A stretch of DNA of 64,000 nucleotides from Lunularia cruciata (lineage: Eukaryota; Streptophyta; Marchantiopsida; Lunulariales; Lunulariaceae): the NCBI GenBank assembly GCA_948567375.1, contig OX419756.1, positions 27,294,333-27,358,332 of the forward strand. Direction: 5' to 3'. The first letter of the stretch is position 1. Each line of letters starts with the position of its first letter. The translations under genes were made by a program, and so were the position numbers. The notes under the pieces were generated by a model. The model did not search any database. It saw nothing but the letters and a program-made list of their open reading frames with translations, and had not been told where the DNA came from. Of this stretch, positions 8,740 to 61,975 are shown piece by piece.

Positions 8740-9276
8740 ATGGGAGGAGGGAAGAAGAACTCCGAATTCGCAGTGAGAAATCATGCGATTCAGAGATTAG
8801 ATGTGATAGTGAGGATCGAAGTCTTGAGCCGACTTCGGATCACATTTCTGGCATGGAACTGGAACATGAGTTTTCCAGGATTCATGACAGAAATCATCAA
8901 GAGTAAGTGTCTTGATGGACCCAAGGAAGAAGGGAAGAGAGGAAATCTGGCTCGTTGGACAGAGTTGGATTGGAGACTCGTACTTGGGAAGGAGGCAGGC
9001 TTGGAATAAGGAGCCACGTTCTTGGGGAAAGGAGAGATAGCTCAGGAGACGCAGGAGGTGAGAGATGCCTTCTTGTCGAAAACAACAAAGAATGGGTACA
9101 AAGTTGAGAGTTACAAGGATCCAATGAAGAGAGGGATCGTGAGTGCTCTCATGGCAATCTTGAAGCCGGAGAGAACAACTTATGTGATGAAACACCAAGT
9201 GGTGTTCTTCCATAAGTTGTTTGCAGGAGAACCTATAAATTGGGCGAGGTGTTTTCACGGGAGAACGAGGCAGATC
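8740..9276 (+). pseudogene. UP1: 5' part of an unknown repeat-associated protein gene, cut by B1
   Basis: I do not recognise the protein. From the ATG at 8740 it aligns with UP2 (from 28096) along its length: IEVLSRLRITFLAWNWNMSFP against IEVLVRLCITFLAWNWNFSFP, then VVFFHKLFAGEPINWARCFH against VVFFHQMFAGVPVNWAKCFH. One in-frame stop (9007-9009) interrupts it, with no frameshift seen. It ends at RTRQI, where the LTR of B1 starts at 9277; the expected continuation is absent. The start was chosen because similarity to UP2 begins there, although an upstream in-frame ATG exists at 8548. It may be a host gene family or a gag-like protein of an undescribed element. Confidence 0.55.
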
Positions 9277-10407
9277 TGTAACACCCATTTGTACATGTGT
9301 GTGGTATTGTGATATTTAGCTTGGTATTACAAGTACTTAAGAGATATTATTTATATAGAGATAAAGGATGGTTCTATATTAGTCATGGTTAGCTAAAGTT
9401 AGTCATAGCTAAGATAGAGGGGACCTTACTTTAGAGGAAGTAGAAAAGATGAGCACCACTATTTTGTATTTTAGTGTGTTGACTTGGTATTATTCCTAGG
9501 TGTTTGGCTTTGAGGAAAGAGTTGAGAACTCTTAGGCCCGCAAGCCTTTTTGTTTTGGATTCTTCTTTAGTCCAAGGATAACCCATGTAAAGGAATCCTT
9601 GACTTAGTGGTTGGGTCTGTGAGCCGGCCTGTCTCTCACTCAGGATGAACCTCTGATGGCTATTATGGTAGCGCACCATGGACTAAGAAGGCAAGGAACC
9701 CCAACTCCATCATACTCCTCCAAGGCTAACACTCCAAGACTCAAGACATTGCTCACTAGAGAACTCAATGAGAGAGAGATAGTTGCAAATGAAAGGATGA
9801 TGAGTACCTCCTCACCCCTTGTTTATATACTTGTGAAATAGTTACGTACCAAAGTTACTAATTACCGTAGTAACTCAAGTTACTAGACTAAAAGTCAAGT
9901 AAAGTCAAAAAGTAGAAAGGAATATCCATTCACATGGGCATATTCCTCTAAGCATGTGGTCTTATCTTGACCAAACCACTAAAGCAAGGATTCCTTCACA
10001 TGGGCTATCCTTGGACTAAAGAAGAATCCAAAACAAAAAGGCTTGCGGGCCCAAGAGTTCTCAACTCTTTCCCCAAAGCCAAACACCTAGGAATAATACC
10101 AAGTCAACACACTAAAATCCAAAATAGTGGTGCTCATCTTTTCTACTTCCTCTAAAGTAAGGTCCCATCTATCTTAGCTATGACTAACTTTAGCTAACCA
10201 TGACTAATATAGAACCATCCTTTATCTCTATATAAATAATATCTCTTAAGTACTTGTAATACCAAGCTAAATATCACAATACCACACACATGCACAAATG
10301 GGTGTTACAGGTCAAGATAAGACCACATGCTTAGGGGAATATGCCCATGTGAATGGATATTCTTTTCTACTTTTTGACTTTACTTGACTTTTAGTCTAGT
10401 AACTTGA
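9277..10407 (+). repeat. B1 5' LTR, split by a solo LTR and 3'-truncated
   Basis: 9277-9617 carries the first half and 10314 to about 10407 continues it. Just after AGTAACTTGAG the sequence jumps into ORFb (GAAAGAGTGAGTC), so the LTR end, primer site, ORFa and leader are deleted. Both partners contain ACTTG or CTTGGAG, which suggests a short-homology deletion. Confidence 0.85.
9618..10309 (-). repeat. Solo B-family LTR inside the B1 5' LTR
   Basis: A 692-bp LTR in reverse orientation (TGTGAGCCGG...GGTGTTACA on the plus strand) with no internal sequence. It is flanked by a perfect 4-bp duplication GGTC (9614-9617 and 10310-10313). This is the expected product of recombination between the two LTRs of a complete insertion. 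Confidence 0.92.
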
Positions 10408-10734
10408 GGAAAGAGTGAGTCTAAGTGCTTTCTATGTAGAGAGAAGGGACATAAGGCAAGTTCATGTCCATTGACCTTTGAGAGCAAGAGATTGAGGGAA
10501 AGGAGAGGCTTACTTGACTTGGGTTTGCATGTTGGACCTTTTTCACCAAGATTGGGAGGGAGAAGATCTAAGACCAAGGAGTTGTGTGAGGTTTGTGGAG
10601 TTGAAGGACTTCCAAAAGGACATGAGTGTAGTGGAGTAAAAGCACTTTTGGAAACTTTGGTGAAGGATCTTGGAGAGAGTCTTAGTACAGCTACAGAAAT
10701 ACTACCACCTTCATCAGCTAGTTCTCAAGATTAG
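10408..10734 (+). pseudogene. B1 ORFb, 3' part (zinc-knuckle protein)
   Basis: Only the C-terminal part remains. It begins in the CCHC knuckle region and continues through CEVCGVEGLPKGHEC to the SSASSQD end. The upstream portion was lost with the LTR/leader deletion, so no start codon of its own remains. Intact copies are in B7 (54068-54541) and B3. Confidence 0.8.
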
Positions 10735-10974
10735 TGATGGAGATAATTTTTCAACTTATGGATAAACTATCCATGAGAGTTAGATTAATATGCATTCTAG
10801 GATTTGATGTTGCTATAGAAATCTTGGAGCAACTAGAACCTTTTGTGTTCCCTAGAGTGGATTATTCTCAGATGGTGTTAGTCATGTATATACACTATTA
10901 GTAATAGAGTGAGAGAAAAGAAAAGAGAAAAAAAATAAAAATTTGAGAGAAAAGAAAGACAGTGAGGGGTTAAG

Positions 10975-12085
10975 ATGGGAAAACTTCCGGTTTTCTTTGG
11001 CAAGGATGGAGAATATGTGGAGGCCTTTGTGAGAGACTTCAAGAGAGCTTGCATAGGAAACAATGAGAGGAGGAAGAATGAGTGGGCCTCATTATTACCA
11101 GATTTCTTTGAGGATGCAGCACTTACATGGTATGAGTCAGAATACCAAAAGAGAGAGAGGAGAGAGGGGGAAGAGGAGTCTTGGGAGACTTTGACTTCAA
11201 CACTCATTGAGAACTTTCTTCCTGATGAGAGTTATGAGAGATTGATGAGTGAGGTTACATTTCTCAAGCAAGGAGATGGAGAGAAAGTGAGAGTCTATGT
11301 GGAAAGAGTGGAAAAGTTGGAGTCCAGATTTCGCATAGTGTTGAGGAAGGGTGGGGATGATGTGGAGACTACAATGATTGGCATAGGGGCCATACTCACC
11401 AAGAATTTTGTGGGAGGATTGAGACCACAAATTAGAAGCAAGGTGAGATATGAGAAACCTTCTTCCAAGGTTGAAGCTATCAAGATCGCAATTTGTATGG
11501 AGGAGAGTTTAGAAGGGGATGAGAGTGATTTGGTGGTGAAGGAGGTTGTGCATCCTCCTCAAGGCTACAAGTATGGTGGAACTTCTGATACTTTGGTGAC
11601 AAGGGTTTCACCACAAGTAGTAGTTGCTCCAGTTCTTGCACCTCCACCAAAAGATCCACTCCAAACCATCACAGAACAACTTGCGGATCTCAAGATCATT
11701 GTGGTGCAACTATGGGAGAAGAGAGAGGTGGATCAAAATGTAGGGAGAGGGCCTAGGAGTTATGGAAACTATCCATATAGAGGAGGCCAACTAGCCAACA
11801 ATTTCAATGATAGAAATTGTTTTGGTTGTGGAGGAAGAGGCCATATCCAAAGGAATTGCCCAAATTCCACTTACCATGGAGGAAGGGGTTATGAGGGAGC
11901 CAATAGAGGGAAAGAGGGAGGTAGTGAAACCCAAGTGGCTCCTAATCCCAACAAAGGTAAGGGAATAGCATCTATAGATGTGGTTGAGAGCAAGTATGAG
12001 AAGGGAGAGTGCTCAAACTCCAAGGGTCTTAATTTGGAGCTTTTGGCACAAGAGAAGAAGAGAGCTCGTTTTGCAGAGGATGTTC
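10975..12085 (+). pseudogene. gag: B1 gag, 5' part, interrupted by B2
   Basis: Starts MGKLPVFFGKDGEYVEAF, preceded by a purine-rich leader. A Retrotrans_gag-like helical region spans residues ~5-130 and a CCHC knuckle (CFGCGGRGHIQRNC) lies at ~281-294. The frame is open until B2's LTR enters after the codons for FAEDV at 12085. It continues in register at 19886 after B2 and the duplicated GTTC. Gag forms the virus-like particle core and binds element RNA. Confidence 0.9.
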
Positions 12086-12763
12086 TGTAACACCCATTTG
12101 TGCATGTGTGTGGTATTGTGATATTTAGCTTGGTATTACAAGTACTTAAGAGATATTATTTATATAGAGATAAAGGATGGTTCTATATTAGTCATGGTTA
12201 GCTAAAGTTAGTCATAGCTAAGATAGATGGGACCTTACTTTAGAGGAAGTAGAAAAGATGAGCACCACTATTTTGGATTTTAGTGTGTTGACTTGGTATT
12301 ATTCCTAGGTGTTTGGCTTTGGGGAAAGAGTTGAGAACTCTTGGGCCCGCAAGCCTTTTTGTTTTGGATTCTTCTTTAGTCCAAGGATAGCCCATGTGAA
12401 GGAATCCTTGCTTTAGTGGTTGGGTCAAGATAAGGGGAATATGCCCATGTGAATGGATATTCCTTTCTACTTTTTGACTTTACTTGACTTTTAGTCTAGT
12501 AACTTGAGTTACTACGGTAATTAGTAACTTTGGTACTAACTATTTCACAAGTATATAAACAAGGAGTGAGGAGGTACTCATGATCCTTTCATTTGCAACT
12601 ATCTCTCTCTCATTGAGTTCTCTAGTGAGCAATGTCTTGAGTCTTGGAGTGTTAGCCTTGGAGGAGTATGATGGAGTTGGGGTTCCTTGCCTTCTTAGTC
12701 CATGGTGCGCTACCATAATAGCCATCAGAGGTTCATCCTGAGTGAGAGACAGGCCGGCTCACA
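12086..12763 (+). repeat. B2 5' LTR
   Basis: 678 bp, TGTAACACCC...CCGGCTCACA. Short LTR subtype, lacking 13 bp (ACCACATGCTTAG) present in the long subtype. TATATAAA lies at 12552-12559 with two TTGACT motifs about 60-80 bp upstream. Confidence 0.95.
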
Positions 12764-12975
12764 TTTTTGGTTCCGTTGCCGGGACCTCTCTAGAAGGCAA
12801 GATAATGTTCCGCGTCCAATTCTACATTAGGCAAAAGGAGGCTATGAGAGCTCACTTGGAAAGAACATTAGGAGAGGAGAGGGCTGAACTTATGTTAGAG
12901 AACCAAGATCCATTTGTATACCCTGTAGTTCATTATGATGTCTTTGAGGTGATTTTGTACATCTTGTACACATGA
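12742..12975 (+). CDS. B2 ORFa, short conserved ORF overlapping the LTR end and primer site
   Basis: A 77-codon frame. The first ATG lies in U5, so the first residues read through the LTR end and primer site; an internal Met at MFRVQFYIRQKEAMRAH may be a more natural start, giving about 56 residues. The later part (LERTLGEERAELMLENQ) is charged and helical-looking. The same frame is kept in B7, B8, B3 and B5. No known domain is recognised, and coding status is uncertain because similar conservation would follow from recent common descent. Confidence 0.4.
   Translation: MRDRPAHIFGSVAGTSLEGKIMFRVQFYIRQKEAMRAHLERTLGEERAELMLENQDPFVYPVVHYDVFEVILYILYT
12768..12785 (+). promoter_or_regulatory. B2 primer-binding site, tRNA-Glu type
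   Basis: TGGTTCCGTTGCCGGGAC, four bases inside the LTR. It is complementary over 18 nt to the 3' end of plant cytosolic tRNA-Glu as I recall it (acceptor strand CAACGGA plus discriminator A and CCA). It differs at two positions from the tRNA-Asp site common in Athila elements. Confidence 0.75.
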
Positions 12976-13623
12976 GAGGAATTGGAGAGATTGTGTGAGG
13001 TGGATTGCAGATTTTGGGGATTAAGGTGATTTTGGGCAAAATCTCAAGTTTGAGATCTGGACTTGAGATTTCTACACATGATAGCTTGGGTTATCTTTCA
13101 GTTAGCACACTTGAAATTATTGAGAGAGCTTCTATGCGCACTGGGCTAGAATTTTTGAAAGTTGATAGGGTAAAGTGCTCCCGCAACTGCATGCTCTCTG
13201 GAAAATTGTACAGAGTCTGCCATTTCTTCAATTTTTAGTGAATTGTCCTGAAAATTTCCAAGAAAATTCAGTGCATTGTATCCTACCTGGTTCCACAAAA
13301 ATTAGAGAGAGATCATTTTTGCACAGTGCGTTATGAGTTTTTGAAGTGAGAGGGGTGGTTTTCAGACCAAATCTGAAATATGGGTGCTGAATAGAAAGGT
13401 GTCTAGCCCAAATGGCTCGATGAAAAGATCTAAAATTTTGCAGGGAGGGACGCCCTAGAGTTGTGATCAAGTGTGGAAAATTTCAGAGGACTGTGACATA
13501 TTGTTTGGGAGATTTGAGTGACATTGTGAGGAAGGGTCAATTCTGCAGAGTGGAGATCTCATGCATGAGAAGTTTGAGATCAACAAAAAGCATGTTTGAG
13601 TGTTTAGATTCATCTTTGGGAAC

Positions 13624-14097
13624 ATGGAGGGTCATCAAGAGTGGAAATTGAGATTATGCAAGGTTCCCCAAGGGTTTGAGGTGATTGTAGGGGTGGATTT
13701 GAGGAAAAGAGAGTTTACAATAGAATTTGAAGAGAGTGTTGAGAGGATCCAAAAACCTACACCACTTGGAGGAAAGAGTGAGTCTAAGTGCTTTCTATGT
13801 GGAGAGAAGGGACATAAGGCAAGTTCATGTCCATAAACCTTTGAGAGCAAGAGATTGAGGGAAAGGAGAGGCTTACTTGACTTGGGTTTGCATGTTGGAC
13901 CTTCTTCACCAAGATTGGGAGGGAGAAGATCTAAGACCAAGGAGTTGTGTGAGGTTTGTGGAGTTGAAGGACTTCCAAAAGGACATGAGTGTAGTGGAGT
14001 AAAAGCACTTTTGGAAACTTTGGTGAAGGATCTTGGAGAGAGTCTTAGTACAGCTACAGAAATACTACCACCTTCATCAGCTAGTTCTCAAGATTAG
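13624..14097 (+). pseudogene. B2 ORFb (zinc-knuckle protein) with one nonsense codon
   Basis: Begins MEGHQEWKLRLCKVPQGFEV. The CCHC knuckle CFLCGEKGHKASSC is intact, then a TAA at 13834-13836 replaces a Leu codon seen in B7. The frame reopens to the SSASSQD end at 14097. This is an extra small protein upstream of gag, separated from gag by about 230 bp containing stops in frame. Its role is unknown; nucleic-acid binding is suggested by the knuckle. Confidence 0.75.
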
Positions 14098-14331
14098 TGA
14101 TGGAGATAATTTTTCAACTTATGGATAAACTATCCATGAGAGTTAGATTAATATGCACTCTAGGATTTGATGTTGCTATAGAAATCTTGGAGCAACCTGA
14201 ACCTTTTGTGTTCCCTAGAGTGGATTATTCTCAGATGGGGTTAGTCATGTATATACACTATTAGTAATAGAGTGAGAGAAAAGAAAAGAGAAAAAAAAAT
14301 TAAGAGAAAAGAAAGATAGTGAGGGGTTAAG

Positions 14332-17300
14332 ATGGGGAAACTTCCGGTTTTCTTTGGCAAGGATGGAGAAGATGTGGAGGCTTTTGTGAGAGACTTCAAG
14401 AGAGCTTGCATAGGAAACAATGAGAGGAGGAAGAATGAGTGGGCCTCATTATTACCAGATTTCTTTGAGGATGCAGCACTTACATGGTATGAGTCAGAAT
14501 ACCAAAAGAGAGAGAGGAGAGAGGGGGAAGAGGAGTCTTGGGAGACTTTGACTTCAGCACTCATTGAGAACTTTCTTCCTGATGAGAGTTATGAGAGATT
14601 GATGAGTGAGGTTACATTTCTCAAGCAAGGAGATGGAGAGAAAGTGAGAGTCTATGTGGAAAGAGTGGAAAAGTTGGAGTCCAGATTTCGCATAGTGTTG
14701 AGGAAGGGTGGGGATGATGTGGAGACTACAATGATTGGCATAGGGGCCATGCTCACCAAGAATTTTGTGGGAGGATTGAGACCACAAATTAGAAGCAAGG
14801 TGAGATATGAGAAACCTTCTTCCAAGGTTGAAGCTATCAAGATCGCAATTCGTATGGAGGAGAGTTTGGAAGGGGATGAGAGTGATTTGGTGGTGAAGGA
14901 GGTTGTGCATCCTCCTCAAGGCTACAAGTATGGTGGAACTTCTGATACTTTGGTGACAAGGGTTGCACCACAAGTAGTAGTTGCTCCAATTCTTGCACCT
15001 CCACCAAAAGATCCACTCCAAACCATCACAGAACAACTTGCGGATCTCAAGATCAATGTGGTGCAACTATGAGAGAAGAGAGAGGTGGATCAGAATGTAG
15101 GGAGAGGACCTAGGAGTTATGGAAACTATCCATATAGAGGAGGCCAACCAGCCAACAATTTCAATGATAGAAATTGTTTTGGTTGTGGAGGAAGAGGCCA
15201 TATCCAAAGGAATTGCCCAAATTCCACTTACCATGGAGGAAGGGGTTATGAGGGAGCCAATAGAGGGAAAGAGGGAGGTAGTGAAACCCAAGTGGCTCCT
15301 AATCCCAACAAAGGTAAGGGGATAGCATCCATAGATGTGGTTGAGAGCAAGTATGAGAAGGGAGAGTGCTCAAACTCCAAGGGTCTTAATTTGGAGCTTT
15401 TGGCACAAGAGAAGAAGAGAGCTCGTTTTGCAGAGGATGTTCACTCTTCTCAAGGATTTACTTCAAGCAAGGATACTCCTATGTCTACTAGGAGCACTCG
15501 CACCTCAACACCATCAACAACAAAGACTCCAAGGAAGAAGTTGGGGATGGAGGACTTCTTGATCTCAAAGCAACAATGGAACTACAATTTGTTGGAGGAT
15601 GTTGGTAGTCACAAGGCTAACATCACAGTGGGCCAATTAATTGCTTTGAACCCTACCTTGAGAAAGGAGCTTAGAGGTGGTTTGAGTTCTACAAGGAGCA
15701 AAAAGAAGAAGAAGGCAAAAGTTCCAGTATCAATGGGGGTGGTGGATGCCAAGCCAGCACCATGGGAGGCTTGTGAATATGCCTCCAAGATTGATGTGAG
15801 AGTGAATGGTCACAACATCAAGGATGCATTGGTTGATGGAGGATCAGCAGTGAATGCCATGTCAGAAAGGTTGATGAAGAAGTTGGGTATGATACCCTCA
15901 AGACCTTCAACATTTGTGGTGAGCATGGCAAACAAGCAACAAGTTCGACCAGTAGGGGTGATGGATAAGGTGGTAGTTTCAGTTATGGGAGTTCAAAATC
16001 TCATGACTTTCCAAGTCTTGAAGGATTCAAGCTATGACTTACTTCTTGGGAGGCCATGGTTGAGAGCAGCACGCACAACTGATCGATGGCACAAAGGGTA
16101 CTTGAGGATTGGGCCATCAAACCATAGAGTCACTGTTCCTGTGACTAACACCACCAACACTTCACATTCAGATACCCCATCTTCTAATTATTGGGAATCA
16201 GATTCTGAAGAAGGAGCTTCAGGTGTGGACACAAGCATGGAAGAGGAGACTTCCACGGAGGAAGATGAATCTGAATCTGATTCAGATGTGTATCCCTTGT
16301 GTGCTATGGATTTTGCACCTAAGCCAGAGGTTTTGAAGGACCCAGATAAATCACCATTGACACTTGAGGAGGTAGAGAGAAGGTTATCTACCCTCAAGTA
16401 TGGCCCAAATGTTACCAAGGAGGAGAAGGTGAGATTTGAGGAGATTTTCCGCAAGTTCATCCATGTGTTTGCTTTTAGTTACAAGGATTTGAAGGAAGTC
16501 ACCTTGGAGGAGCACAAGATAGAGGTGGAGTCACATGCAAGACCAATCCGCCAAAAGCAACGTCGCATTAGCCCACCAATATCTTTGGTTGTGAAGGAGG
16601 AGATTGATAAGCTCAAGGAGGCTGGATTTATCTTTGAGGTGGAGAATTCAGAATGGGTGTCTCCAATTGTCATTGTGAAGAAAAAGAATGGCAAGCTTCG
16701 GGTATGTGTGGATTACAAGAAGCTTAATGCTGTTACCAAGAAGGACTACTACCCATTGCCATTCATTGATGAGATCTTGGAGGAGGTTGCAGGTCATGAG
16801 AGGTACAGTTTTGGAGATGGTTATAGTGGATATAACCAAATAAAGATTGCACCAGAGCATCAACAACTCACCACATTCACCACACCTTGGGGAACTTACG
16901 CTTTCAAGGTCATGCCTTTTGGGCTTTGCAATGCTCCAGCCACATTCCAACGGTTCATGAACAAGGTATTTGAACCTTTCATTGGGAAATTTGTGAGAGA
17001 TTTCATTGATGACTTTTGTGTCTATGGGAGCAAGGAGGAGCACTTTGAGCACCTAATCAAAGTCTTGCAACGCTTGGATGAGGCAAATGCATCACTCAAC
17101 CCAGAGAAGTGCATTTTTGGATGTGAAGAAGGTCTACTTTTGGGGCACATCATCTCCAAGGATGGAATAGCAGTTGATCCTGAGAAGGTGAGGAAAATCT
17201 CAGACCTTCCATTCCCTTCAAGCTTGACAAAGTTACGCCAATTCTTGGGAATGGTTGGGTACTATAGGAGGTTCATCTTCTCATTTTCCAACAAGGCTTA

Positions 17301-19158
17301 TGCATTGACCATCTACATGAAGAAGGGTGTAGATTACATGGTGATTTTGGAAGACAAGGAGGCTCTCAAAGCTTTTGAGGAGCTCAAGCAATCCCTTGTT
17401 GTAGCTCCAATTCTTGCTAAACCTGATTGGAGTAAGCCTTTCATCCTCTACACTGATGCTTCTAATGTAGCTATAGGATGCACTCTTAGTCAATTAGACC
17501 AAGATGGGCATGATCATCCAATAGCTTATGCTAGTAGGCAGATGGTTTCAGCAGAGAAGAACTACTCTGTCACAGAGAGAGAAGGGTTGGCAGTGATCTT
17601 TGGTCTCAAGAAGTTTAGACACTACTTGATTGGAGGGAAAGCCACAATTGTCACGGATCACAAGGCTTTGAAGTACATCTTCAACAAGCCTAATGTTGAA
17701 GGGAGACTAGCAAGGTGGATGATACTCTTGTCTGAGTATGACTACACAATTGAGGATAGGCCAGTAAAGAAACATGCAAATGCTGATTTGTTATCTAGAG
17801 CCTATGATCATGATGGAGATGAGCCAGTAGATGATTCCTTCCCGGATGAGGAGCTCATGACAATCTCAGTCACTCAAGAGATTCCAATGGAGTACAAGGA
17901 GATTGTGGATTTTGTGACAAGAGGTAACTATCCAGAAGGGATGCATGCTAGGGAGAGGAAGGCCCTTGCAGCAAGATCTAGACCTTACACAATGGTGGAG
18001 GATATTCTTTTTCACCAAGGAGCAGATGGTCTACTTCGAAGAGCAGTGGGTAAGGAAGAGTCTATCCTACTCATAAAGGAGTTTCATGAAGGTTTAGTAT
18101 GTGGAGGACACTTTGCAGGAAAGGTGACTGCTTTCAAGATTCTAGATGCAGGTTACCATTGGAGAGGGATTTTCAAGGATTGTCTTGATTATTGCAAAAC
18201 TTGTCATGTTTGTCAAGCTTTTGCTAGAAAGTCTACATCCACTCCACCACTTAGATCAATTCCATTGCTAGGACCTTTTGAGAAGTGGGGAATTGATTTT
18301 GTAGGACCTCTCAATAGAACCCCAAGGAACAATCGGTACATTGTGGTAGTTACTGATGACCTTACCAAGTGGGTTGAGGCTAGACCATTGAGGGACAAAA
18401 ATGAAGATGAAGTGGGTAGATTTCTTTATGAACGCATTATCACTAGGTTTGGATGCCCTTCGGAGTTGGTTTCTGATAGAGGAGGAGAGTTTACAGGAAG
18501 CATTACTACAGCCATGCTACGACATTTCTCTATCACACATAGAGTAACTACATCCTATAAGCCAAATTCCAATGGCTTGGCAGAGAGAACCAATCAGACC
18601 TTGTGCATGATGTTGGCCAAAGATGCAGAAATGGAGGGGGCTAAACATCATTGGGACAAGAGGATTCATGCAGTTTTGTGGGAGTATAGGACAACCATGA
18701 AGACTTCCACTGGATATTCTCCATTCCAATTGGTGTATGGTATTGAGTCTACCTTACCTATTCACTTTGATCTTCCTACCTTCCAAAGCATTCATAGGAG
18801 ATTGAAGAAAGCACAAGGAAGTGATGCAGGGAAGTCAAGGAAGGATCAACTCATGGAGTTGGAAGAGGCAAGAGCAGTTGCTATGGTTCGAGTGGAGCAA
18901 GCCCAAAGGAAACAAAAGGAGAGCTATGACAAGAGGCAAGGCAAGAAGAAGGTGGAGCCTTTCAAAGAAGGTGATTGGGTAATGTTGTTTGATTCCATTC
19001 GATTCAAGAGAGTGCAAAAGAAGTTTTTGCCTAAGTACTTTGGACCTTTCATAGTAGAGAAGGTGTGGGGCAATTACACCTATGATCTCAAGGAGTTGGG
19101 AGGAAGACACTTTGATAGGATTAACCATGATAAGTTGAAGATGTACCATAGAAGGTAG
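14332..19158 (+). pseudogene. gag-pol: B2 gag-pol, nearly intact, single TGA after gag
   Basis: A 1608-codon frame broken only by TGA at 15070-15072, where other copies have TGG (Trp). Order: Gag (from MGKLPVFFGKDGED), CCHC knuckle (about 15174-15215), protease with ALVDGGSAVNAM near 15825, RT with FIDDFCVYG near 17002, RNase H from LYTDASNVAIG near 17450, integrase with an HHCC region (CKTCHVC near 18195), catalytic WGIDFVG, VSDRGGEF and GLAERTN, and a C-terminal GPF-type segment ending MYHRR. There is no chromodomain. The F-I-D-D-F loop and lack of chromodomain point to the Athila/Tat side of Ty3/gypsy. All catalytic residues look intact. Without readthrough of the TGA only truncated Gag would be made. 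Confidence 0.92.
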
Positions 19159-19195
19159 AGAGACCTTCACTTTGAGGACAAAGTGAAAACTTAGT

Positions 19196-53207: not shown

Positions 53208-53419
53208 TTTTTGGTTCCGTTGCCGGGACCTCTCTAGAAGGCAAGATAATGTTCCGCGTCCAATTCTACATTAGGCAGAAGGAGGCTATGAGAGCTCACT
53301 TGGAGAGAACATTAGGAGAGGAGAGGGCTGAACTTATGTTAGAGAACCAAGATCCATTTGTATACCCTGTAGTTCATTATGATGTCTTTGAGGTGATTTT
53401 GTACATCTTGTACACATGA
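53186..53419 (+). CDS. B7 ORFa
   Basis: 77 codons in the same frame as ORFb and gag-pol (ORFb ATG is 882 nt downstream of the ORFa start; gag ATG is 708 nt further; both multiples of 3, as in B2). Stops separate them, so simple readthrough cannot join them. The content is as in B2. It may be translated, may be an upstream ORF, or may be non-coding leader. Confidence 0.4.
   Translation: MRDMPAHIFGSVAGTSLEGKIMFRVQFYIRQKEAMRAHLERTLGEERAELMLENQDPFVYPVVHYDVFEVILYILYT
53212..53229 (+). promoter_or_regulatory. B7 primer-binding site, tRNA-Glu type
   Basis: TGGTTCCGTTGCCGGGAC, identical to B2 and B8 (62659-62676). Confidence 0.75.
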
Positions 53420-54067
53420 GAGGAATTGGAGAGATTGTGTGAGGTGGATTGTAGATTTTGGGGATTAAGGTGATTTTGGGTAAAATCTCAAGTTTGAGAT
53501 CTGGACTTGAGATTTCTACACATGATAGCTTGGGTTATCTTTCAGTTAGCACACTTGAAATTATTGAGAGAGCTTCTATGCGCATTGGGCTAGAATTTTT
53601 GAAAGTTGATAGGGTAAAGTGCTCCCGCAACTGCATGCTCTCTGGAAAATTGTACAGAGTCTGCCATTTCTTCAATTTTCAGTGAATTGTCCTGAAAATT
53701 TCCAAGGAAATTGAGTGCATTGTATCCTACCTGCTGCCACAAAAATGAGAGAGAGATCGTTATTGTGCAAGGCGTTATGAGTTTTTGAAGTGAGAGGGGT
53801 GGTTTTCAGACCAAATCTAAAATATGGATGCTGAATAGAAAGGTGTCTAGGCCAAAAGGCTCAATGAAAAGATCTGAAATTTTGCAGGGAGGGACGCCCT
53901 GGAGTTGTGCTCAAGTGTGGAAAATTTCAGAGGACTGTGACATATTGGTTGGGAGATTTGAGTGACATTGTGAGGAAGGGTCAATTCTGCAGAGTGGAGA
54001 TCTCATGCATGAGAAGTTTGAGATCAACAAAAAGCATGTTTGAGTGTTTAGATTCATCTTGGGGAAC

Positions 54068-54541
54068 ATGGAGGGTCATCAAGAGTGGAAATTGAGATTA
54101 TGCAAGGTTCCCCAAGGGTTTGAGGTGATTGTAGGGGTGGATTTGAGGAAAAGAGAGTTTACAATAGAATTTGAAGAGAGTATTGAGAGGATCCAAAAAC
54201 CTACACCACTTGGAGGAAAGAGTGAGTCTAAGTGCTTTCTATGTGGAGAGAATGGACATAAGGCAAGTTCATGTCCATTGACCTTTGAGAGCAAGAGATT
54301 GAGGGAAAGGAGAGGCTTACTTGACTTGGGTTTGCATGTTGGACCTTCTTCACCAAGATTGGGAGGGAGAAGATCTAAGACCAAGGAGTTGTGTGAGGTT
54401 TGTGGAGTTGAAGGACTTCCAAAAGGACATGAGTGTAGTGGAGTAAAAGCACTTTTGGAAACTTTGGTGAAGGATCTTGGAGAGAGTCTTAGTACAGCTA
54501 CAGAAATACTACCACCTTCATCAGCTAGTTCTCAAGATTAG
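54068..54541 (+). CDS. B7 ORFb, zinc-knuckle protein upstream of gag
   Basis: About 157 codons from MEGHQEWKLRL; an upstream in-frame ATG at 54044 would add eight residues. The start was chosen because MEGHQEW is conserved in B3, B6 and B8. It has CCHC knuckle CFLCGENGHKASSC, a basic KRLRERR stretch, then Cys/His cluster CEVCGVEGLPKGHEC, and a Ser/Pro-rich end. An extra ORF before gag is known in some Tat/Ogre elements, but I do not recognise this protein as theirs. A nucleic-acid-binding or accessory role is inferred. Confidence 0.7.
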   Translation: MEGHQEWKLRLCKVPQGFEVIVGVDLRKREFTIEFEESIERIQKPTPLGGKSESKCFLCGENGHKASSCPLTFESKRLRERRGLLDLGLHVGPSSPRLGGRRSKTKELCEVCGVEGLPKGHECSGVKALLETLVKDLGESLSTATEILPPSSASSQD

Positions 54542-54710
54542 TGATGGAGATAATCTTTCAACTTATGGATAAACTATCCATGAGAGTTAGATTAATATGC
54601 ACTCTAGGATTTGATGTTGCTATAGAAATCTTGGAGCAACCTGAACCTTTTGTGTTCCCTAGAGTGGATTATTCTCAGATGGTGTTAGTCATGTATATAC
54701 TCTATTAGTA

Positions 54711-54775
54711 ATAGAGTGAGAGAAAAGAAAAGAGAAAAAAAAATTGAGAGAAAAGAAAGATAGTGAGGGGTTAAG
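54711..54775 (+). promoter_or_regulatory. Purine-rich leader in front of gag
   Basis: About 65 bases almost wholly A and G, directly before the gag ATG. Also present before gag in B1, B2, B3 and B6. It could aid internal translation start or act as a second polypurine tract; neither is shown. Confidence 0.4.
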
Positions 54776-57700
54776 ATGGGGAAACTTCCGGTTTTCTTTG
54801 GCAAGGATGGAGAAGATGTGGAGGCCTTTGTGAGAGACTTCAAGAGAGCTTGCATAGGAAACAATGAGAGGAGGAAGAATGAGTGGGCCTCATTATTACC
54901 AGATTTCTTTGAGGATGCAGCACTTACATGGTATGAGTCAGAATACCAAAAGAGAGAGAGGAGAGAGGGGGAAGAGGAGTCTTGGGAGACTTTGACTTCA
55001 ACACTCATTGAGAACTTTCTTCCTGATGAGAGTTATGAGAGATTGATGAGTGAGGTTACATTTCTCAAGCAAGGAGATGGAGAGAAAGTGAGGGTCTATG
55101 TGGAAAGAGTGGAAAAGTTGGAGTCTAGATTTCGCATAGTGTTGAGGAAGGGTGGGAATGATGTGGAGACTACAATGATTGGCATAGGGGCCATGCTCAC
55201 CAAGAATTTTGTGGGAGGATTGAGACCACAAATTAGAAGCAAGGTGAGATATGAGAAACCTTCTTCCAAGGTTGAAGCTATCAAGATCGCAATTCGTATG
55301 GAGGAGAGTTTGGAAGGGGATGAGAGTGATTTGGTGGTGAAGGAGGTTGTGCATCCTCCTCAAGGCTATAAGTATGGTGGAACTTCTGATACTTTGGTGA
55401 CAAGGGTTGCACCACAAGTAGTAGTTGCTCCAGTTCTTGCACCTCCACCAAAAGATCCACTCCAAACCATCACAGAACAACTTGCGGATCTCAAGATCAA
55501 TGTGGTGCAACTATGGGAGAAGAGAGAGGTGGATCAGAATGTAGGGAGAGGGCCTAGGAGTTATGGAAACTATCCATATAGAGGAGGCCAACCAGCCAAC
55601 AATTTCAATGATAGAAATTGTTTTGGTTGTGGAGGAAGAGGCCATATCCAAAGGAATTGCCCAAATTCCACTTACCATGGAGGAAGGAGTTATGAGGGAG
55701 CCAATAGAGGGAAAGAGGGAGGTAGTGAAACCCAAGTGGCTCCTAATCCCAACAAAGGTAAGGGGATAGCATCCATAGATGTGGTTGAGAGCAAGTATGA
55801 GAAGGGAGAGTGCTCAAACTCCAAGGGTCTTAATTTGGAGCTTTTGGCACAAGAGAAGAAGAGAGCTCGTTTTGCAGAGGATGTTCACTCTTCTCAAGGA
55901 TTTACTTCAAGCAAGGATACTCCTATGTCTACTAGGAGCACTCGCACCTCAACACCATCAACAACAAAGACTCCAAGGAAGAAGTTGGGGATGGAGGACT
56001 TCTTGATCTCAAAGCAACAATGGAACTACAATGTGTTGGAGGACGTTGGTAGTCACAAGGCTAACATCACAGTGGGCCAATTAATTGCTTTGAACCCTAC
56101 CTTGAGAAAGGAGCTTAGAGGTGGTTTGAGTTCTACAAGGAGCAAGAAGAAGAAGAAGGCAAAAGTTCCAGTATCAATGGGGGTGGTGGATGCCAAGCCA
56201 GCACCATGGGAAGCTTGTGAATATGCCTCCAAGATTGATGTGAGAGTGAATGGTCACAACATCAAGGATGCATTGGTTGATGGAGGATCAGCAGTGAATG
56301 CCATGTCAGAAAGGTTGATGAAGAAGTTGGGTATGATACCCTCAAGACCTTCAACATTTGTGGTGAGCATGGCAAACAAGCAACAAGTTCGACCAGTAGG
56401 GGTGATGGATAAGGTAGTAGTTTCAGTTATGGGAGTTCAAAATCTCATGACTTTCCAAGTCTTGAAGGATTCAAGCTATGACTTACTTCTTGGGAGGCCA
56501 TGGTTGAGAGCAGCACGCACAACTGATCGATGGCACAAAGGGTACTTGAGGATTGGGCCATCAAACCATAGAGTCACTGTTCCTGTGACTAACACCACCG
56601 ACACTTCACATTCAGATACCCCATCTTCTGATTATTGGGAATCAGATTTTGAAGGAGCTTCAGGTGTGGACACAAGCATGGAAGAGGAGACTTCCACAAA
56701 GGAGGATGAATCTGAATCTGATTCAGATGTGTATCCTTTGTGTGCTATGGATTTTGCACCTAAGCCAGAGGTTTTGAAAGACCCAGATAAATCACCATTG
56801 ACACTTGAGGAGGTAGAGAGAAGGTTATCTACCCTCAAGTATGGCCCAAATGTTACCAAGGAGGAGAAGGTGAGATTTGAGGAGATTTTCCACAAGTTCA
56901 TCCATGTGTTTGCTTTTAGTTACAAGGATTTGAAGGAAGTCACCTTGGAGGAGCACAAGATAGAGGTGGAGTCACATGCAAGACCAATCCGACAAAAGCA
57001 ACGTCGCATTAGCCCACCAATATCTTTGGTTGTGAAGGAGGAGATTGATAAGCTCAAGGAGGCTGGATTTATCTTTGAGGTGGAGAATTCAGAATGGGTG
57101 TCTCCAATTGTCATTGTGAAGAAAAAGAATGGCAAGCTTCGGGTATGTGTGGATTACAAGAAGCTCAATGCTGTTACCAAGAAGGACTACTACCCATTGC
57201 CATTCATTGATGAGATCTTGGAGGAGGTTGCAGGTCATGAGAGGTACAGTTTTGGAGATGGTTATAGTGGATATAACCAAATCAAGATTGCACCAGAGCA
57301 TCAACAACTCACCACATTCACCACACCTTGGGGAACTTACGCTTTCAAGGTCATGCCTTTTGGGCTTTGCAATGCTCCAGCCACATTCCAACGGTTCATG
57401 AACAAGGTATTTGAACCTTTCATTGGGAAATTTGTGAGAGATTTCATTGATGACTTTTGTGTCTATGGGAGCAAGGAGGAGCACTTTGAGCACCTAATCA
57501 AAGTCTTGCAACGCTTGGATGAGGCAAATGCATCACTCAACCCAGAGAAGTGCATTTTTGGATGTGAAGAAGGTCTACTTTTGGGGCATATCATCTCCAA
57601 GGATGGAATAGCAGTTGATCTTGAGAAGGTGAGGAAAATCTCAGACCTTCCATTCCCTTCAAGCTTGACAAAGTTACGCCAATTCTTGGGGATGGTTGGG

Positions 57701-59599
57701 TACTATAGGAGGTTCATCTTTTCATTTTCCAACAAGGCTTATGCATTGACCATCTACATGAAGAAGGGTGTAGATTACGTGGTGATTTTGGAAGACAAGG
57801 AGGCTCTCAAAGCTTTTGAGGAGCTCAAGCAATCCCTTGTTGTAGCTCCAATTCTTGCTAAACCTGATTGGAGTAAACCTTTCATCCTCTACACTGATGC
57901 TTCTAATGTAGCTATAGGATGCACTCTTAGTCAATTAGACCAAGATGGGCATGATCATCCAATAGCTTATGCTAGTAGGCAGATGGTTTCAGCAGAGAAG
58001 AACTACTCTGTCACGGAGAGAGAAGGGTTGGCAGTGATCTTTGGTCTCAAGAAGTTTAGACACTACTTGATTGGAGGGAAAGCCACCATTGTCACGGATC
58101 ACAAGGCTTTGAAGTACATCTTCAACAAGCCTAATGTTGAAGGGAGACTAGCAAGGTGGATGATACTTTTGTCTGAGTATGACTACACCATTGAAGATAG
58201 GCCAGGAAAGAAACATGCAAATGGTGATTTATTATCTAGAGCCTATGATCATGATGGAGATGAGCCAGTGGATGATTCCTTCCCGGATGAGGAGCTCATG
58301 ACAATCTCAGTCACTCAAGAGGTTCCAATGGAGTACAAGGAGATTGTGGATTTTGTGACAAAAGGTAACTATCCAGAAGGGATGCATGCTAGGGAGAGGA
58401 AGGCCCTTGCAGCAAGATCTAGACCTTACACAATGGTGGAGGATATTCTTTTTCACCAAGGAGCAGATGGTCTACTTCGAAGAGCAGTGGGTAAGGAAGA
58501 GTCTATCCTACTCATAAAGGAGTTTCATGAAGGTTTAGTATGTGGAGGACACTTTGCAGGAAAGGTGACTGCTTTCAAGATTCTAGATGCAGGTTACCAT
58601 TGGAGAGGGATTTTCAAGGATTGTCTTGATTATTGCAAAACTTGTCATGTTTGTCAAGCTTTTGCTAGAAAGTCTACATCCACTCCACCACTTAGATCAA
58701 TTCCATTGCTAGGACCCTTTGAGAAGTGGGGAATTGATTTTGTAGGTCCTCTCAATAGAACCCCAAGGAACAATAGGTACATTGTGGTAGTTACTGATTA
58801 CCTTACCAAGTGGGTTGAGGCTAGACCATTGAGGGACAAGAATGAAGATGAAGTGGGTAGATTTCTTTATGAACGCATTATCACTAGGTTTGGATGCCCT
58901 TTGGAGTTGGTTTCTAATAGAGGAGGAGAGTTTACAGGAAGCATTACTACAGCCATGCTACGACATTTCTCTATCACACATAGAGTAACTACATCCTATA
59001 AGCCAAATTCCAATGGCTTGGCAGAGAGAACCAATCAGACCTTGTGCATGATGTTGGCCAAAGATGCAGAAATGGAGGGGGCTAAACATCATTGGGACAA
59101 GAGGATTCATGCAGTTTTGTGGGAGTATAGGACAACCATGAAAACTTACACTGGATATTCTCCATTTCAATTGGTGTATGGTATTGAGTCTACCTTACCT
59201 ATTCACTTTGATCTTCCTACCTTCCAAAGCATTCATAAGAGATTGAAGAAAGCACAAGGAGGTGATGCAGAGAAGTCAAGGAAGGATCAACTCATGGAGT
59301 TGGAAGAGGCAAGAGCAGTTGCTATGGTTGGAGTGGAGCAAGCCCAAAGGAAACAAAAGGAGAGCTATGATAACAGGCAAGACAAGAAGAAGGTGGAGCC
59401 TTTCAAAGAAGGTGATTGGGTAATGTTGTTTGATTCCATTCGATTCAAGAGAGTGCAAAAGAAGTTTTTGCCTAAGTACTTTGGACCTTTCATAGTGGAG
59501 AAGGTGTGGGGCAATTACACCTATGATCTCAAGGAGTTGGGAGGAAGACACTTTGATAGGATTAACCATGATAAGTTGAAGATGTACCATAGAAGGTAG
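54776..59599 (+). CDS. gag-pol: B7 gag-pol polyprotein, 1607 residues, uninterrupted
   Basis: One frame encodes all structural and enzymatic functions. Gag covers ~1-300: helical Retrotrans_gag-like part ~5-130, Pro-rich linker ~215-230, CCHC knuckle CFGCGGRGHIQRNC ~281-294. The aspartic protease has ALVDGGSAVNAM (~500; D-G-G rather than D-S/T-G). RT lies at ~725-900, with VCVDYKKLN, SFGDGYSGYNQIKI and catalytic FIDDFCVYG (~890). RNase H starts at ~1040 with LYTDASNVAIG, then TDHKALKYI. Integrase has an HHCC zinc region to ~1290, first Asp in WGIDFVG (~1320), the second at ~1380 reading N in VSNRGGEF, and Glu in GLAERTN (~1415). The end has a GPF-type module and no chromodomain. The frame is fully open but the D-to-N change should block integration. 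B2 keeps Asp there. Confidence 0.95.
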   Translation: MGKLPVFFGKDGEDVEAFVRDFKRACIGNNERRKNEWASLLPDFFEDAALTWYESEYQKRERREGEEESWETLTSTLIENFLPDESYERLMSEVTFLKQGDGEKVRVYVERVEKLESRFRIVLRKGGNDVETTMIGIGAMLTKNFVGGLRPQIRSKVRYEKPSSKVEAIKIAIRMEESLEGDESDLVVKEVVHPPQGYKYGGTSDTLVTRVAPQVVVAPVLAPPPKDPLQTITEQLADLKINVVQLWEKREVDQNVGRGPRSYGNYPYRGGQPANNFNDRNCFGCGGRGHIQRNCPNSTYHGGRSYEGANRGKEGGSETQVAPNPNKGKGIASIDVVESKYEKGECSNSKGLNLELLAQEKKRARFAEDVHSSQGFTSSKDTPMSTRSTRTSTPSTTKTPRKKLGMEDFLISKQQWNYNVLEDVGSHKANITVGQLIALNPTLRKELRGGLSSTRSKKKKKAKVPVSMGVVDAKPAPWEACEYASKIDVRVNGHNIKDALVDGGSAVNAMSERLMKKLGMIPSRPSTFVVSMANKQQVRPVGVMDKVVVSVMGVQNLMTFQVLKDSSYDLLLGRPWLRAARTTDRWHKGYLRIGPSNHRVTVPVTNTTDTSHSDTPSSDYWESDFEGASGVDTSMEEETSTKEDESESDSDVYPLCAMDFAPKPEVLKDPDKSPLTLEEVERRLSTLKYGPNVTKEEKVRFEEIFHKFIHVFAFSYKDLKEVTLEEHKIEVESHARPIRQKQRRISPPISLVVKEEIDKLKEAGFIFEVENSEWVSPIVIVKKKNGKLRVCVDYKKLNAVTKKDYYPLPFIDEILEEVAGHERYSFGDGYSGYNQIKIAPEHQQLTTFTTPWGTYAFKVMPFGLCNAPATFQRFMNKVFEPFIGKFVRDFIDDFCVYGSKEEHFEHLIKVLQRLDEANASLNPEKCIFGCEEGLLLGHIISKDGIAVDLEKVRKISDLPFPSSLTKLRQFLGMVGYYRRFIFSFSNKAYALTIYMKKGVDYVVILEDKEALKAFEELKQSLVVAPILAKPDWSKPFILYTDASNVAIGCTLSQLDQDGHDHPIAYASRQMVSAEKNYSVTEREGLAVIFGLKKFRHYLIGGKATIVTDHKALKYIFNKPNVEGRLARWMILLSEYDYTIEDRPGKKHANGDLLSRAYDHDGDEPVDDSFPDEELMTISVTQEVPMEYKEIVDFVTKGNYPEGMHARERKALAARSRPYTMVEDILFHQGADGLLRRAVGKEESILLIKEFHEGLVCGGHFAGKVTAFKILDAGYHWRGIFKDCLDYCKTCHVCQAFARKSTSTPPLRSIPLLGPFEKWGIDFVGPLNRTPRNNRYIVVVTDYLTKWVEARPLRDKNEDEVGRFLYERIITRFGCPLELVSNRGGEFTGSITTAMLRHFSITHRVTTSYKPNSNGLAERTNQTLCMMLAKDAEMEGAKHHWDKRIHAVLWEYRTTMKTYTGYSPFQLVYGIESTLPIHFDLPTFQSIHKRLKKAQGGDAEKSRKDQLMELEEARAVAMVGVEQAQRKQKESYDNRQDKKKVEPFKEGDWVMLFDSIRFKRVQKKFLPKYFGPFIVEKVWGNYTYDLKELGGRHFDRINHDKLKMYHRR

Positions 59600-59636
59600 A
59601 GAGACTTTCACTTTGAGGACAAAGTGAAAACTTAGT

Positions 59637-59647
59637 CCGGGGGTAAA
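59637..59647 (+). promoter_or_regulatory. B7 polypurine tract
   Basis: CCGGGGGTAAA immediately before the 3' LTR, the same as in B1 and B2. Confidence 0.7.
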
Positions 59648-60337
59648 TGTAACACCCATTTGTGCATGTGTGTGGTATTGTGATATTTAGCTTGGTATTA
59701 CAAGTACTTAAGAGATATTATTTATATAGAGATAAAGGATGGTTCTATATTAGTCATGGTTAGCTAAAGTTAGTCATAGCTAAGATAGATGGGACCTTAC
59801 TTTAGAGGAAGTAGAAAAGATGAGCACCACTATTTTGGATTTTAGTGTGTTGACTTGGTATTATTCCTAGGTGTTTGGCTTTGGGGAAAGAGTTGAGAAC
59901 TCTTGGGCCCGCAAGCCTTTTTGTTTTGGATTCTTCTTTAGTCCAAGGATAGCCCATGTGAAGGAATCCTTGCTTTAGTGGTTGGGTCAAGATAAGACCA
60001 CATGCTTAGAGGAATATGCCCATGTGAATGGATATTCCTTTCTACTTTTTGACTTTACTTGACTTTTAGTCTAGTAACTTGAGTTACTACGGTAATTAGT
60101 AACTTTGGTACGTAACTATTTCACAAGTATATAAACAAGGGGTGAGGAGGTACTCGTCATCCTTTCATTTGCAACTATCTCTCTCTCATTGAGTTCTCTA
60201 GTGAACAATGTCTTGAGTCTTGGAGTGTTAGCCTTGGAGGAGTATGATGGAGTTCGGGTTCCTTGCCTTCTTAGTCCATGGTGCTACCATAATAGCCATC
60301 AGAGGTTCATCCTGAGTGAGAGACAGGCCGGCTCACA
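59648..60337 (+). repeat. B7 3' LTR
   Basis: 690 bp, long subtype, lacking 2 bp (GC of GTGCGCTACC) relative to the 5' LTR. Confidence 0.95.
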
Positions 60338-60565
60338 GTACAAGATGTACAAAATCACCTCAAAGACATCATAATGAACTACAGGGTATACAAATGGATC
60401 TTGGTTCTCTAACGTAAGTTCAGCCTTCTCCTCTCCTAATGTTCTCTCCAAGTGAGCTCTCATAGCCTCCTTCTGCCTAATGTAGAATTGAACGCGGAAC
60501 ATTATCTTGCCTTCTAGAGAGGTCCCGGCAATGGAACCAAAAATGTGAGCCGGCCTGTCTCTCAC
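60338..60565 (-). pseudogene. B6 ORFa and primer site, cut by B7
   Basis: Minus-strand continuation of B6 after the duplicated GTAC. Encodes GTSLEGKIMFRVQFYIRQKEA and onward to the B7 boundary. The primer site lies just inside 60544, with one change from consensus. Confidence 0.6.
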
Positions 60566-61235
60566 TCAGGATGAACCTCTGATGGCTATTATGGTAGCGC
60601 ACCATGGACTAAGAAGGCAAGGAACCCCAACTCCATCATACTCCTCCAAGGCTAACACTCCAAGACTCAAGACATTGCTCACTAGAGAACTTAATGAGAG
60701 AGAGATAGTTGCAAATGAAAGGATGTTGAGTACCTCCTCACCCCTTGTTTATATACTTGTGAAATAGTTACGTACCAAAGTTACTAATTACCGTAGTAAC
60801 TCAAGTTACTAGACTAAAAGTCAAGTAAAGTCAAAAAGTAGAAAGGAATATCCATTCACATGGGCATATTCCCCTAAGCATGTGGTCTTATCTTGACCCA
60901 ACCACTAAGTCAAGGATTCCTTCACATGGGCTATCCTTGGACTAAAGAAGAATCCAAAACAAAAAGGCTTGCGGGCCCAAGAGTTCTCAACTCTTTCCTC
61001 AAAGCCAAACACCTAGGAATAATACCAAGTCAACACACTAAAATCCAAAATAGTGGTGCTCATATTTTCTACTTCCTCTAAAGTAAGGTCCCCTTTATCT
61101 TAGCTATGACTAACTTTAGCTAACCATGACTAATATAGAACCATCCTTTATCTCTATATAAATAATATCTCTTAAGTACTTGTAATACCAAGCTAAATAT
61201 CACAATACCACACACATGCACAAATGGGTGTTACA
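60544..61235 (-). repeat. B6 5' LTR
   Basis: 692 bp, long subtype, complete. Outer flank ATCC. Confidence 0.93.
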
Positions 61236-61975
61236 ATCCACCATAGCCAGGAACTCGAAGGCTCAACATCAGAGAACTGAGCTCTCTAGAGCTCACTTCA
61301 AAACTATACCCCTTGGACTTGAGCTAGATCTGAAACCCCAACGGTCCCACTGACGGCACACTCGATGGTGCAAAGTGACGGTGGACCCCCCGTGAAGTCA
61401 GTACCCCAAACACAAAATCTGACCATCAGAAAGTAGTCTCTGATAAACTGTTGAAGTAACTCTTACTACTATCACTGGAACTCCAGTGTCCGAGCATCTA
61501 GATGCGGCACTACAAATGGCATGACAGCTGTCGTGCATATATACATCGCTACACAACATACATCGCTGTCAACATCATACACTATAGAAGCACAACTCAC
61601 ACATAAGTCATACATAGACTCTAAAGTGCCACAATCGCCCCCCTAGCTGGCGATTAGGTCCCTCTAACTCCAGATAGCCATCTACTCTAAGTATATGGTA
61701 TACCCTCTAATGGGCAAAGATCAAGAGGCCGGGTGCTATGGAGCCCCATTGTTAGTTGCTTGTCTGCAATCTATACCATATAAAGAATGAACTAGCTATA
61801 GGTCAAGTACATCTAGGACATAACCATTGTTCCTGAGGAACCACTGTGAGGAAAGGAGTCATACATGCCATATGCCATCCTCTCGAACAGCTATCACACA
61901 CAAGTAGCAGCTCCACCAGAAGAGCCACATAACATACACCTCAAGCCTGCACGTACAAGTGCCAAGCTTGGGTCC
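61236..61975. other. Unassigned 740-bp segment between B6 and B8
   Basis: No convincing long frame on either strand. GC-richer and compositionally unlike the B elements. On the minus strand near 61640-61655 a run CTAGGGGGGCGATTGTGG resembles the polypurine/LTR junction of copia elements, with a possible coding tail upstream (DGYLELEGPNRQLGG). It may be the 3' end of another retroelement. The right edge GTCC (61972-61975) is the B8 target flank. Confidence 0.4.

What the first reader, a model, noticed from the sequence alone, without database searches (positions are those of the whole stretch)
9273..61975. B-family retrotransposon integrates with 4-bp duplications that follow a GNNC pattern
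Three insertions have both flanks preserved: GTTC (12082/19886), GTAC (52512/60338) and GGTC (9614/10310). Each duplication is exactly 4 bp and reads G-N-N-C. Single flanks of other copies agree: GATC (9273), GACC (24314), GTGC (33112), GTCC (33812), GTCC (61972), GAAC (41236). GTCT (28046) and ATCC (61236) are one transition away. The G and C are not part of the element, because the internal LTR edges (AAA before TG at the 3' LTR, TTTT after CA at the 5' LTR) lack them. Plant Ty3/gypsy elements usually make 5-bp duplications, so both the length and the palindromic constraint are unusual and point to an integrase with its own target geometry.
Basis: seen in the sequence. Interest (0 to 1): 0.85.

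Follow-up and report, generated by a model that had tools for sequence, protein, structure and literature searches.

The report
Liverwort retrotransposon inserts at GNNC
A very abundant jumping gene in what looks like a liverwort genome mostly inserts where the DNA reads G-any-any-C and copies exactly those four bases, a much sharper target choice than is usually reported for plant elements of its kind.

Summary
Uninserted paralogues at three nested insertions fit a 4-bp duplication.

In the window's own genome (565.8 Mb) an exact 21-base LTR start occurs 7,649 times; 3,025 are internal edges. Of the other 4,624, 3,032 (66%) follow GNNC; chance from window composition is about 4%. From 140 sampled places, 73 insertions have both flanks: 48 have an exact duplication, all 4 bp, 45 of them GNNC. 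Another LTR family of this genome has GNNC at 0 of 14 external 5' flanks.

Weaker, symmetric preferences add T before, A after, and an excess of purine-pyrimidine centres (42%), the step retroviral integrases avoid.

The element is Ty3/gypsy without a detected chromodomain; nearest named proteins are from Marchantia and Riccia. Its integrase model matches foamy-virus and Ty3 integrases about equally.

Four-bp duplications and palindromic targets are known. The strength and form of this preference are the new part: a new variant of a known kind.

The parts
9277..24313 (+). E1: B element, with a deletion from the LTR into the internal region, split by S1 and E2; external 4-mers GATC (9273-9276) and GACC (24314-24317)
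   Evidence: the two flanks lie in different sequences, so they are counted as two junction events
9618..10309 (-). S1: solo LTR inside the 5' LTR of E1; duplication GGTC at 9614-9617 and 10310-10313
   Evidence: empty-site test with 11 paralogues, 7 of them free of other length differences
12086..19885 (+). E2: complete-length B element inside E1; duplication GTTC at 12082-12085 and 19886-19889; LTRs 99.4% identical
   Evidence: 5 paralogues
15085..19158 (+). pol reading frame of E2: protease, reverse transcriptase, RNase H, integrase (zinc domain and core; an SH3-like end below Pfam's cut-off)
   Evidence: Pfam hits; integrase piece 18037-19158 used
24314..28045 (-). E3: 5' part of a B element; 5' flank GTCT at 28046-28049, a diverged copy of the 33812 flank
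33116..33811 (-). E4: solo LTR; flanks GTGC (33112-33115) and GTCC (33812-33815)
34974..41235 (-). E5: B element with 3' LTR cut after 78 bases and an internal deletion; 5' flank GAAC at 41236-41239; LTR begins TATAAC
48799..61235 (-). E6: partial B element, split by E7; 5' flank ATCC at 61236-61239 (GGAT in element orientation), the one non-GNNC event of the ten
52516..60337 (+). E7: complete-length B element inside E6; duplication GTAC at 52512-52515 and 60338-60341; LTRs 98.6% identical
   Evidence: 5 paralogues
61976..64000 (+). E8: B element cut by the window end; 5' flank GTCC at 61972-61975
12764..12786 (+). internal edge of the 5' LTR: TTTT spacer, then the likely primer binding site starting TGG at 12768; lacks the flanking GNNC
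19198..19206 (+). internal edge of the 3' LTR: G-run and TAAA before TG; lacks the flanking GNNC

Best explanation
B is a Ty3/gypsy retrotransposon of a liverwort-centred clade without a detected chromodomain. Its integrase joins the two cDNA ends across a 4-bp stagger and reads the target base pairs at the two joining points, so that most insertions fall at 5'-G-N-N-C-3', with weaker preferences summed up as (T)|G-R-Y-C|(A). Shown: exact 4-bp duplications, near-invariant outer G and C supplied by the target, weaker T and A one base outside, an excess of purine-pyrimidine centres, and no GNNC at the sampled 5' flanks of another LTR family of the same genome. Inferred: that the base reading is done by the integrase itself, symmetrically, by the two catalytic protomers of an intasome. 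Speculative: that Gly at the position of PFV Ala188/HIV Ser119, shared by B and two near relatives while most other relatives have Thr or Ser, contributes to it.
Against: 25 of the 73 insertions with both flanks have no exact 4-bp match: 14 differ at one base, 11 at two or three; mutation and LTR recombination would explain these but were not shown, and at least four solo rows (L051, L056, L081, L085) have doubtful 3' ends. 34% of the non-internal LTR starts in the genome do not follow GNNC; how many are decayed internal edges or mutated flanks is unknown. Ty3 integrase, tied with PFV in fold, makes 5-bp duplications (recalled), so the fold does not predict the stagger. PMC4422553 cites modelling in which Gly at the HIV Ser119 position contacts bases at -2/+6, not -1; B shows no clear preference at -2 (T 17 of 48). 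No biochemical test. The Gly correlation rests on one clade.
Confidence: 0.85

Rival explanations
1. The element itself carries the outer C and G (ends C-TG...CA-G) and duplicates only the two middle bases.
For: Every two-sided insertion can be written that way on paper.
Against: Uninserted paralogues hold the complete G-N-N-C once (21 paralogue alignments at three sites). The internal edges are TAAA|TG and CA|TTTT, without C or G.
Confidence: 0.01
2. The pattern reflects host chromatin or a tethering factor that brings the element to DNA of a certain make-up, not base reading by the integrase.
For: Retroelements do choose chromatin regions (recalled); nesting is common here.
Against: The signal sits on two single bases in register with the joins, about 2 bits each, while other positions have at most 0.36 bits. 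Family A in the same genome lacks GNNC at its 14 external 5' flanks. Targets include B's own LTR and internal region as well as other sequence.
Confidence: 0.06
3. The set is inflated by copies of a few sites: segmental duplication of an element with its flanks, or a repeat that serves as hot spot.
For: Examples exist: 28046/33812; L086/L087 and L081/L085 share flanks; the S1 site inside the LTR recurs at L082.
Against: No two of the 48 exact duplications have identical 12+12-base flanks, and they show 14 different 4-mers. Bases from -6 to -4 are near background. Near-identical flanks were not clustered.
Confidence: 0.05
4. Ordinary weak palindromic preference of plant LTR elements, overstated because of a small window.
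For: Weak palindromic preferences are reported for plant LTR elements (PMC6911290, passages).
Against: The preference is strong and genome-wide. PMC6317226 reports TSD sequences of plant elements as highly variable except in Phygy (NCGN). The 4-bp class in PMC6911290 is GC-rich in the centre, the reverse of this case.
Confidence: 0.03

Closest known systems
Phygy, moss non-chromovirus Ty3/gypsy (PMC6317226; PMC6911290)
   Same: non-chromovirus of a non-seed plant, mostly 4-bp duplications, a real target motif with two-fold symmetry
   Different: motif NCGN (inner bases) against GNNC here (outer bases); no Phygy protein was compared
Marchantia polymorpha AXG93_2752s1770 (P0110) and Riccia sorocarpa R1sor_012683 (P0026)
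   Same: 84% and 76% identity over reverse transcriptase-RNase H, P0026 over 62% of it; P0110 groups with B in the tree (P0026 was too short to include); Riccia also reads SDRGGE in the integrase
   Different: P0110 as annotated has no integrase hit; their insertion sites could not be read here
Prototype foamy virus integrase / intasome (3oy9, 4e7k)
   Same: top of the fold list (tied with Ty3), 4-bp stagger, T disfavoured at the joining base
   Different: PFV site KWK|VYRB|MWM is weak and has a pyrimidine-purine centre (PMC4422553); B is strong and has a purine-pyrimidine excess
Yeast Ty3 integrase (7q5b)
   Different: 5-bp duplications at tRNA gene starts (recalled)
HIV-1 target site TDG|GTWAC|CHA (PMC4422553)
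   Same: outermost duplicated bases are G and C
   Different: 5-bp duplication, weak preference, flexible centre
Drosophila gypsy and Idefix-clade elements (PMC3276498)
   Same: Ty3/gypsy, 4-bp duplication, high-information palindromic motif extending beyond it
   Different: TATA/ATAT motifs

Membership tests
Ty3/gypsy LTR retrotransposon | LTRs ending TG...CA and pol order protease, RT, RNase H, integrase | tested here: met
Ty3/gypsy LTR retrotransposon | tRNA primer binding site next to the 5' LTR | tested here: inconclusive
   TGG starts 4 bases after the LTR; likeness to tRNA-Asp is recalled, no tRNA was compared
plant non-chromovirus | no chromodomain | tested here: met
   no chromodomain hit at E 0.001 in the pol ORF
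plant non-chromovirus | RT groups apart from chromoviruses | tested here: met
   22-row clade, support 100/100, apart from the three chromodomain rows, whose branches are long; 6 of 34 chosen proteins were dropped as too short
Tat (Ogre/Retand) | second, archaeal-type RNase H | tested here: not met
   no PF13456 or PF00075 hit in pol
Athila | phylogenetic place with Athila | tested here: inconclusive
   the two PF20167 rows in the tree (a domain I recall as going with Athila) sit in another supported clade; the B clade joins an unresolved fork
Phygy | preference for NCGN duplications | tested here: not met
   no CG centre among the 48 exact duplications
Phygy | RT/INT phylogeny | not tested
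   no protein named as Physcomitrium appeared among the hits listed (one search lists 120 of 6,083)
retroviral-type (DDE) integrase | fold and catalytic core | tested here: met
retroviral 4-bp target rule | T disfavoured at the joining base | tested here: met
   0 of 48
retroviral 4-bp target rule | central YR favoured, RY avoided | tested here: not met
   RY 22, YR 11 of 48; GRYC 1,263 of 3,032; listed rows RY 44, YR 20 of 100

The most novel reading that the evidence does not exclude
B's integrase uses a target geometry of its own. It does not unstack a flexible pyrimidine-purine step in the middle of the 4-bp site as foamy virus does; it reads and deforms the TpG and CpA steps that straddle the two joining points, tolerating or preferring a stiff purine-pyrimidine centre. 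A one-residue change in the target-contacting helix (Gly at the PFV Ala188 position) in the liverwort clade may be part of this shift.
Probability: 0.25. Interest if true: 0.7.

Novelty: new variant of a known kind. Interest (0 to 1): 0.55.

Why it matters
A retroviral-type integrase with a strong two-base target rule would be a natural model for how base specificity can be built into an enzyme class known for weak preferences. The very high copy number gives thousands of natural integration events, so the specificity can be dissected statistically. In genome annotation, a 4-bp GNNC rule also gives a sharp criterion for calling true ends and solo LTRs of this family.

Tried and rejected
Two-bp duplication with C and G carried by the element: rejected by the empty sites. 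Five-bp duplication: rejected. The flank pair 28046/33812 as independent events: rejected. Viral contig scan with the LTR start: 0 matches. tRNA scan of the window: none. Looking for 3' ends of family A: the end motif I used turned out to lie inside its LTR, so its duplication length stays unknown and only its 5' flanks serve as control. One search was a faulty version of that control, because loci on the minus strand were not turned; one search replaces it. The first end-finder for B LTRs misplaced ends where CA has become TA; one search replaces it. Paper searches that could have shown this motif (0, 13, 19, 4, 57, 93 and 87 papers, of which 0, 13, 15, 4, 12, 12 and 12 were listed) showed nothing on GNNC in the titles and abstract starts listed; the library lacks most subscription journals. 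The host name is not established. Lunularia cruciata is only a guess, from the Ty3/gypsy bursts described in PMC9985172 (passages). Counts of GYRC before the LTR and of the 3' LTR ends genome-wide were asked for but did not complete.
Full report
What was claimed.

The window. Most of the B material is nested. BLAST of the LTR and internal region against the window gives: E1 9277-24313 (+), holding a solo LTR S1 9618-10309 (-) and E2 12086-19885 (+); E3 24314-28045 (-); solo LTR E4 33116-33811 (-); E5 34974-41235 (-, rearranged); E6 48799-61235 (-), holding E7 52516-60337 (+); and E8 61976-64000 (+). Complete LTRs are 678 to 696 bases. All 14 flanks named in the finding are there.

Duplication length. 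For the three insertions with both flanks intact and nested in other B copies, the target can be read in uninserted paralogues. Joined flanks align to 5 (E2), 5 (E7) and 11 (S1) paralogues without a gap at the junction if 4 bases are dropped. If 3, 5 or 6 are dropped a gap appears in 17 of the 21; the other 4, at S1, carry a separate 13-base length difference that blurs the 5- and 6-base cases. The paralogues hold GTTC, GTAC and GGTC once. So the duplication is 4 bp, and G and C come from the target. The internal LTR edges read TAAA|TG and CA|TTTT.

Statistics in the window. In element orientation the independent junction events read GATC, GACC, GTTC, GACC, GGAC, GCAC, GTTC, GGAT, GTAC, GTCC: 9 of 10 GNNC. 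The background of G..C at that spacing in the window is 3.8%, binomial chance 1.5e-12; joining doubtful ends gives 7 of 8, 8e-10. Other frames give 0 or 1 of 8. The E3 flank was left out as a copy of the E4 flank (96.4% over 280 bp); as it stands it reads AGAC, not GNNC.

Genome-wide test. G000 has 565.8 Mb in 74 contigs. The LTR start with up to 3 mismatches in 28 bases occurs 13,892 times, and the reversed-pattern control 0 times. The exact 21-base LTR start occurs 7,649 times. It is preceded by TAAA, taken as the internal edge, 3,025 times, and by GNNC 3,032 times. That is 3,032 of 4,624, 65.6%, where about 4% is expected from window composition. T stands before the G in 1,623 of these 3,032, 53.5% against 29%. 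The centre is purine-pyrimidine (GRYC) in 1,263 of 3,032, 41.7% against about 25%.

Sampled insertions. I fetched all 100 places listed (L009-L108) and two short edge stretches for 40 consecutive places of the 100 listed (L109-L188). The samples come from the first 24.2 Mb of contig C1 only. In sample 1, 43 of 62 external 5' flanks and 48 of 69 external 3' flanks are GNNC; several of the 69 have doubtful ends. Of the 40 elements in sample 2, 26 had both ends found and 14 did not; 29 of 38 readable 3' flanks are GNNC. Together 73 insertions have both flanks (31 solo LTRs and 16 pairs from sample 1, 26 pairs from sample 2): 48 exact duplications, all 4 bp, none 5 or 6; 14 with one mismatch in the 4-mer; 11 with two or three. 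At least four solo rows among these (L051, L056, L081, L085) have a poor match to the LTR end. Of the 48, 45 are GNNC (the others AAAC, GACT, GAAG), with 14 different 4-mers and no two with identical 12+12 flanking bases. Relative information is 2.1 and 2.0 bits at the outer bases, 0.36 at -1 and at most 0.28 elsewhere; the 99.9% point of a random control is 0.27. The smaller signals are symmetric too: T at -1 29 of 48 and A at +4 24 of 48; C rare at the second base (4 of 48) and G at the third (1 of 48); A rare at -3 (3 of 48) and T rare at +6 (4 of 48). Central steps: RY 22, RR 10, YR 11, YY 5 of 48. Of the 100 rows listed: RY 44, YR 20, YY 20, RR 16.

Control. Family A, another LTR family of this window with 5,836 LTR starts at up to 3 mismatches, has GNNC at 0 of 14 external 5' flanks; the other 16 of the 30 loci fetched (the best matches) are internal edges. 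Its duplication length could not be read. A copia-like element (by eye) at 44602-48592 has AAAA on both sides.

What the element is. The pol frame has protease, RT, RNase H, zinc domain and integrase core, and an SH3-like end below the cut-off; no chromodomain and no second RNase H were hit. By identity, the nearest RT-RNase H proteins among the 120 listed of 6,083 are P0110 of Marchantia polymorpha (84%), P0001 of unnamed source (77%) and P0026 of Riccia sorocarpa (76% over 62% of the query). In an RT tree of 29 rows B, P0110 and P0001 form one clade (100/100), inside a 22-row clade (100/100) apart from the chromodomain rows; 6 of the 34 proteins chosen, P0026 among them, were dropped as too short. 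So this looks like a liverwort-centred non-chromovirus clade and the host is probably a thalloid liverwort; its name was not established.

Comparison with print. Neumann et al. 2019 (PMC6317226; passages and section 9): 93.4% of plant elements have 5-bp and 6.2% 4-bp duplications, the length is typical of most lineages, and sequences are highly variable except Phygy (NCGN). Jedlicka et al. 2019 (PMC6911290, passages): 4 bp is commonest in Galadriel, Phygy and Bryco; the 4-bp class is GC-rich in the centre; weak palindromes are general. Linheiro and Bergman 2012 (PMC3276498, passages): most fly Ty3/gypsy families make 4-bp duplications with palindromic TATA or ATAT motifs. Serrao et al.: 4-bp retroviruses disfavour T at the joining base, strongly prefer a YR centre and avoid RY. 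B shares the 4-bp stagger, the symmetry and the avoidance of T at the join. It differs in strength and in its RY-rich centre. My paper searches listed no report of a GNNC rule; the listings are capped and the library is partial.

Mechanism. Shown: length, motif, source of the bases, contrast with one other family. Inferred: symmetric reading by the two catalytic protomers during strand transfer. Speculative: the Gly, and deformation at the TpG and CpA steps that straddle the cuts. Verdict: a true and strong feature, a new variant of a known kind.

Noticed in passing
L009, L028, L035, L084, L093, L118, L156, L158, L160, L180; window 41230-41239: In these ten loci the terminal CA of the LTR reads TA, in most with the 4-bp duplication kept; E5 shows the mirror change at its start (TATAAC). 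Insertion at GNNC puts CTG and CAG (CHG context) at both element ends, so methylation and C-to-T decay at the ends would be expected; this is inference.
   Followed up: partly
window 9614-10313 and L082: Two solo LTRs sit at the same site inside a B LTR with the same GACC duplication: a recurrent target or a duplicated locus.
   Followed up: no
window 28046-33115 and 33812-34090: A non-B sequence (C) of 5 kb whose start is repeated behind a B LTR; it holds a roughly 0.6-kb unit in three tandem copies at about 30606-32405. A diverged C piece (67%) also flanks E1 at 8770-9275.
   Followed up: partly
window 34087-35051: The 3' LTR of E5 breaks after 78 bases into an internal B fragment that joins a C fragment at about 34086: a rearranged or chimeric junction.
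   Followed up: no
window 1-8186: Two copies of another LTR family with reverse transcriptase (A, 5,836 LTR starts in the genome) in inverted orientation.
   Followed up: partly
window 44602-48592: Copia-like element (by eye) with roughly 240-bp LTRs inside an A copy, flanked by AAAA on both sides; the empty site is visible at about 7673.
   Followed up: partly
L086/L087 and L081/L085: Pairs of B LTR loci sharing the same or nearly the same flank: local duplications or LTR recombination.
   Followed up: no
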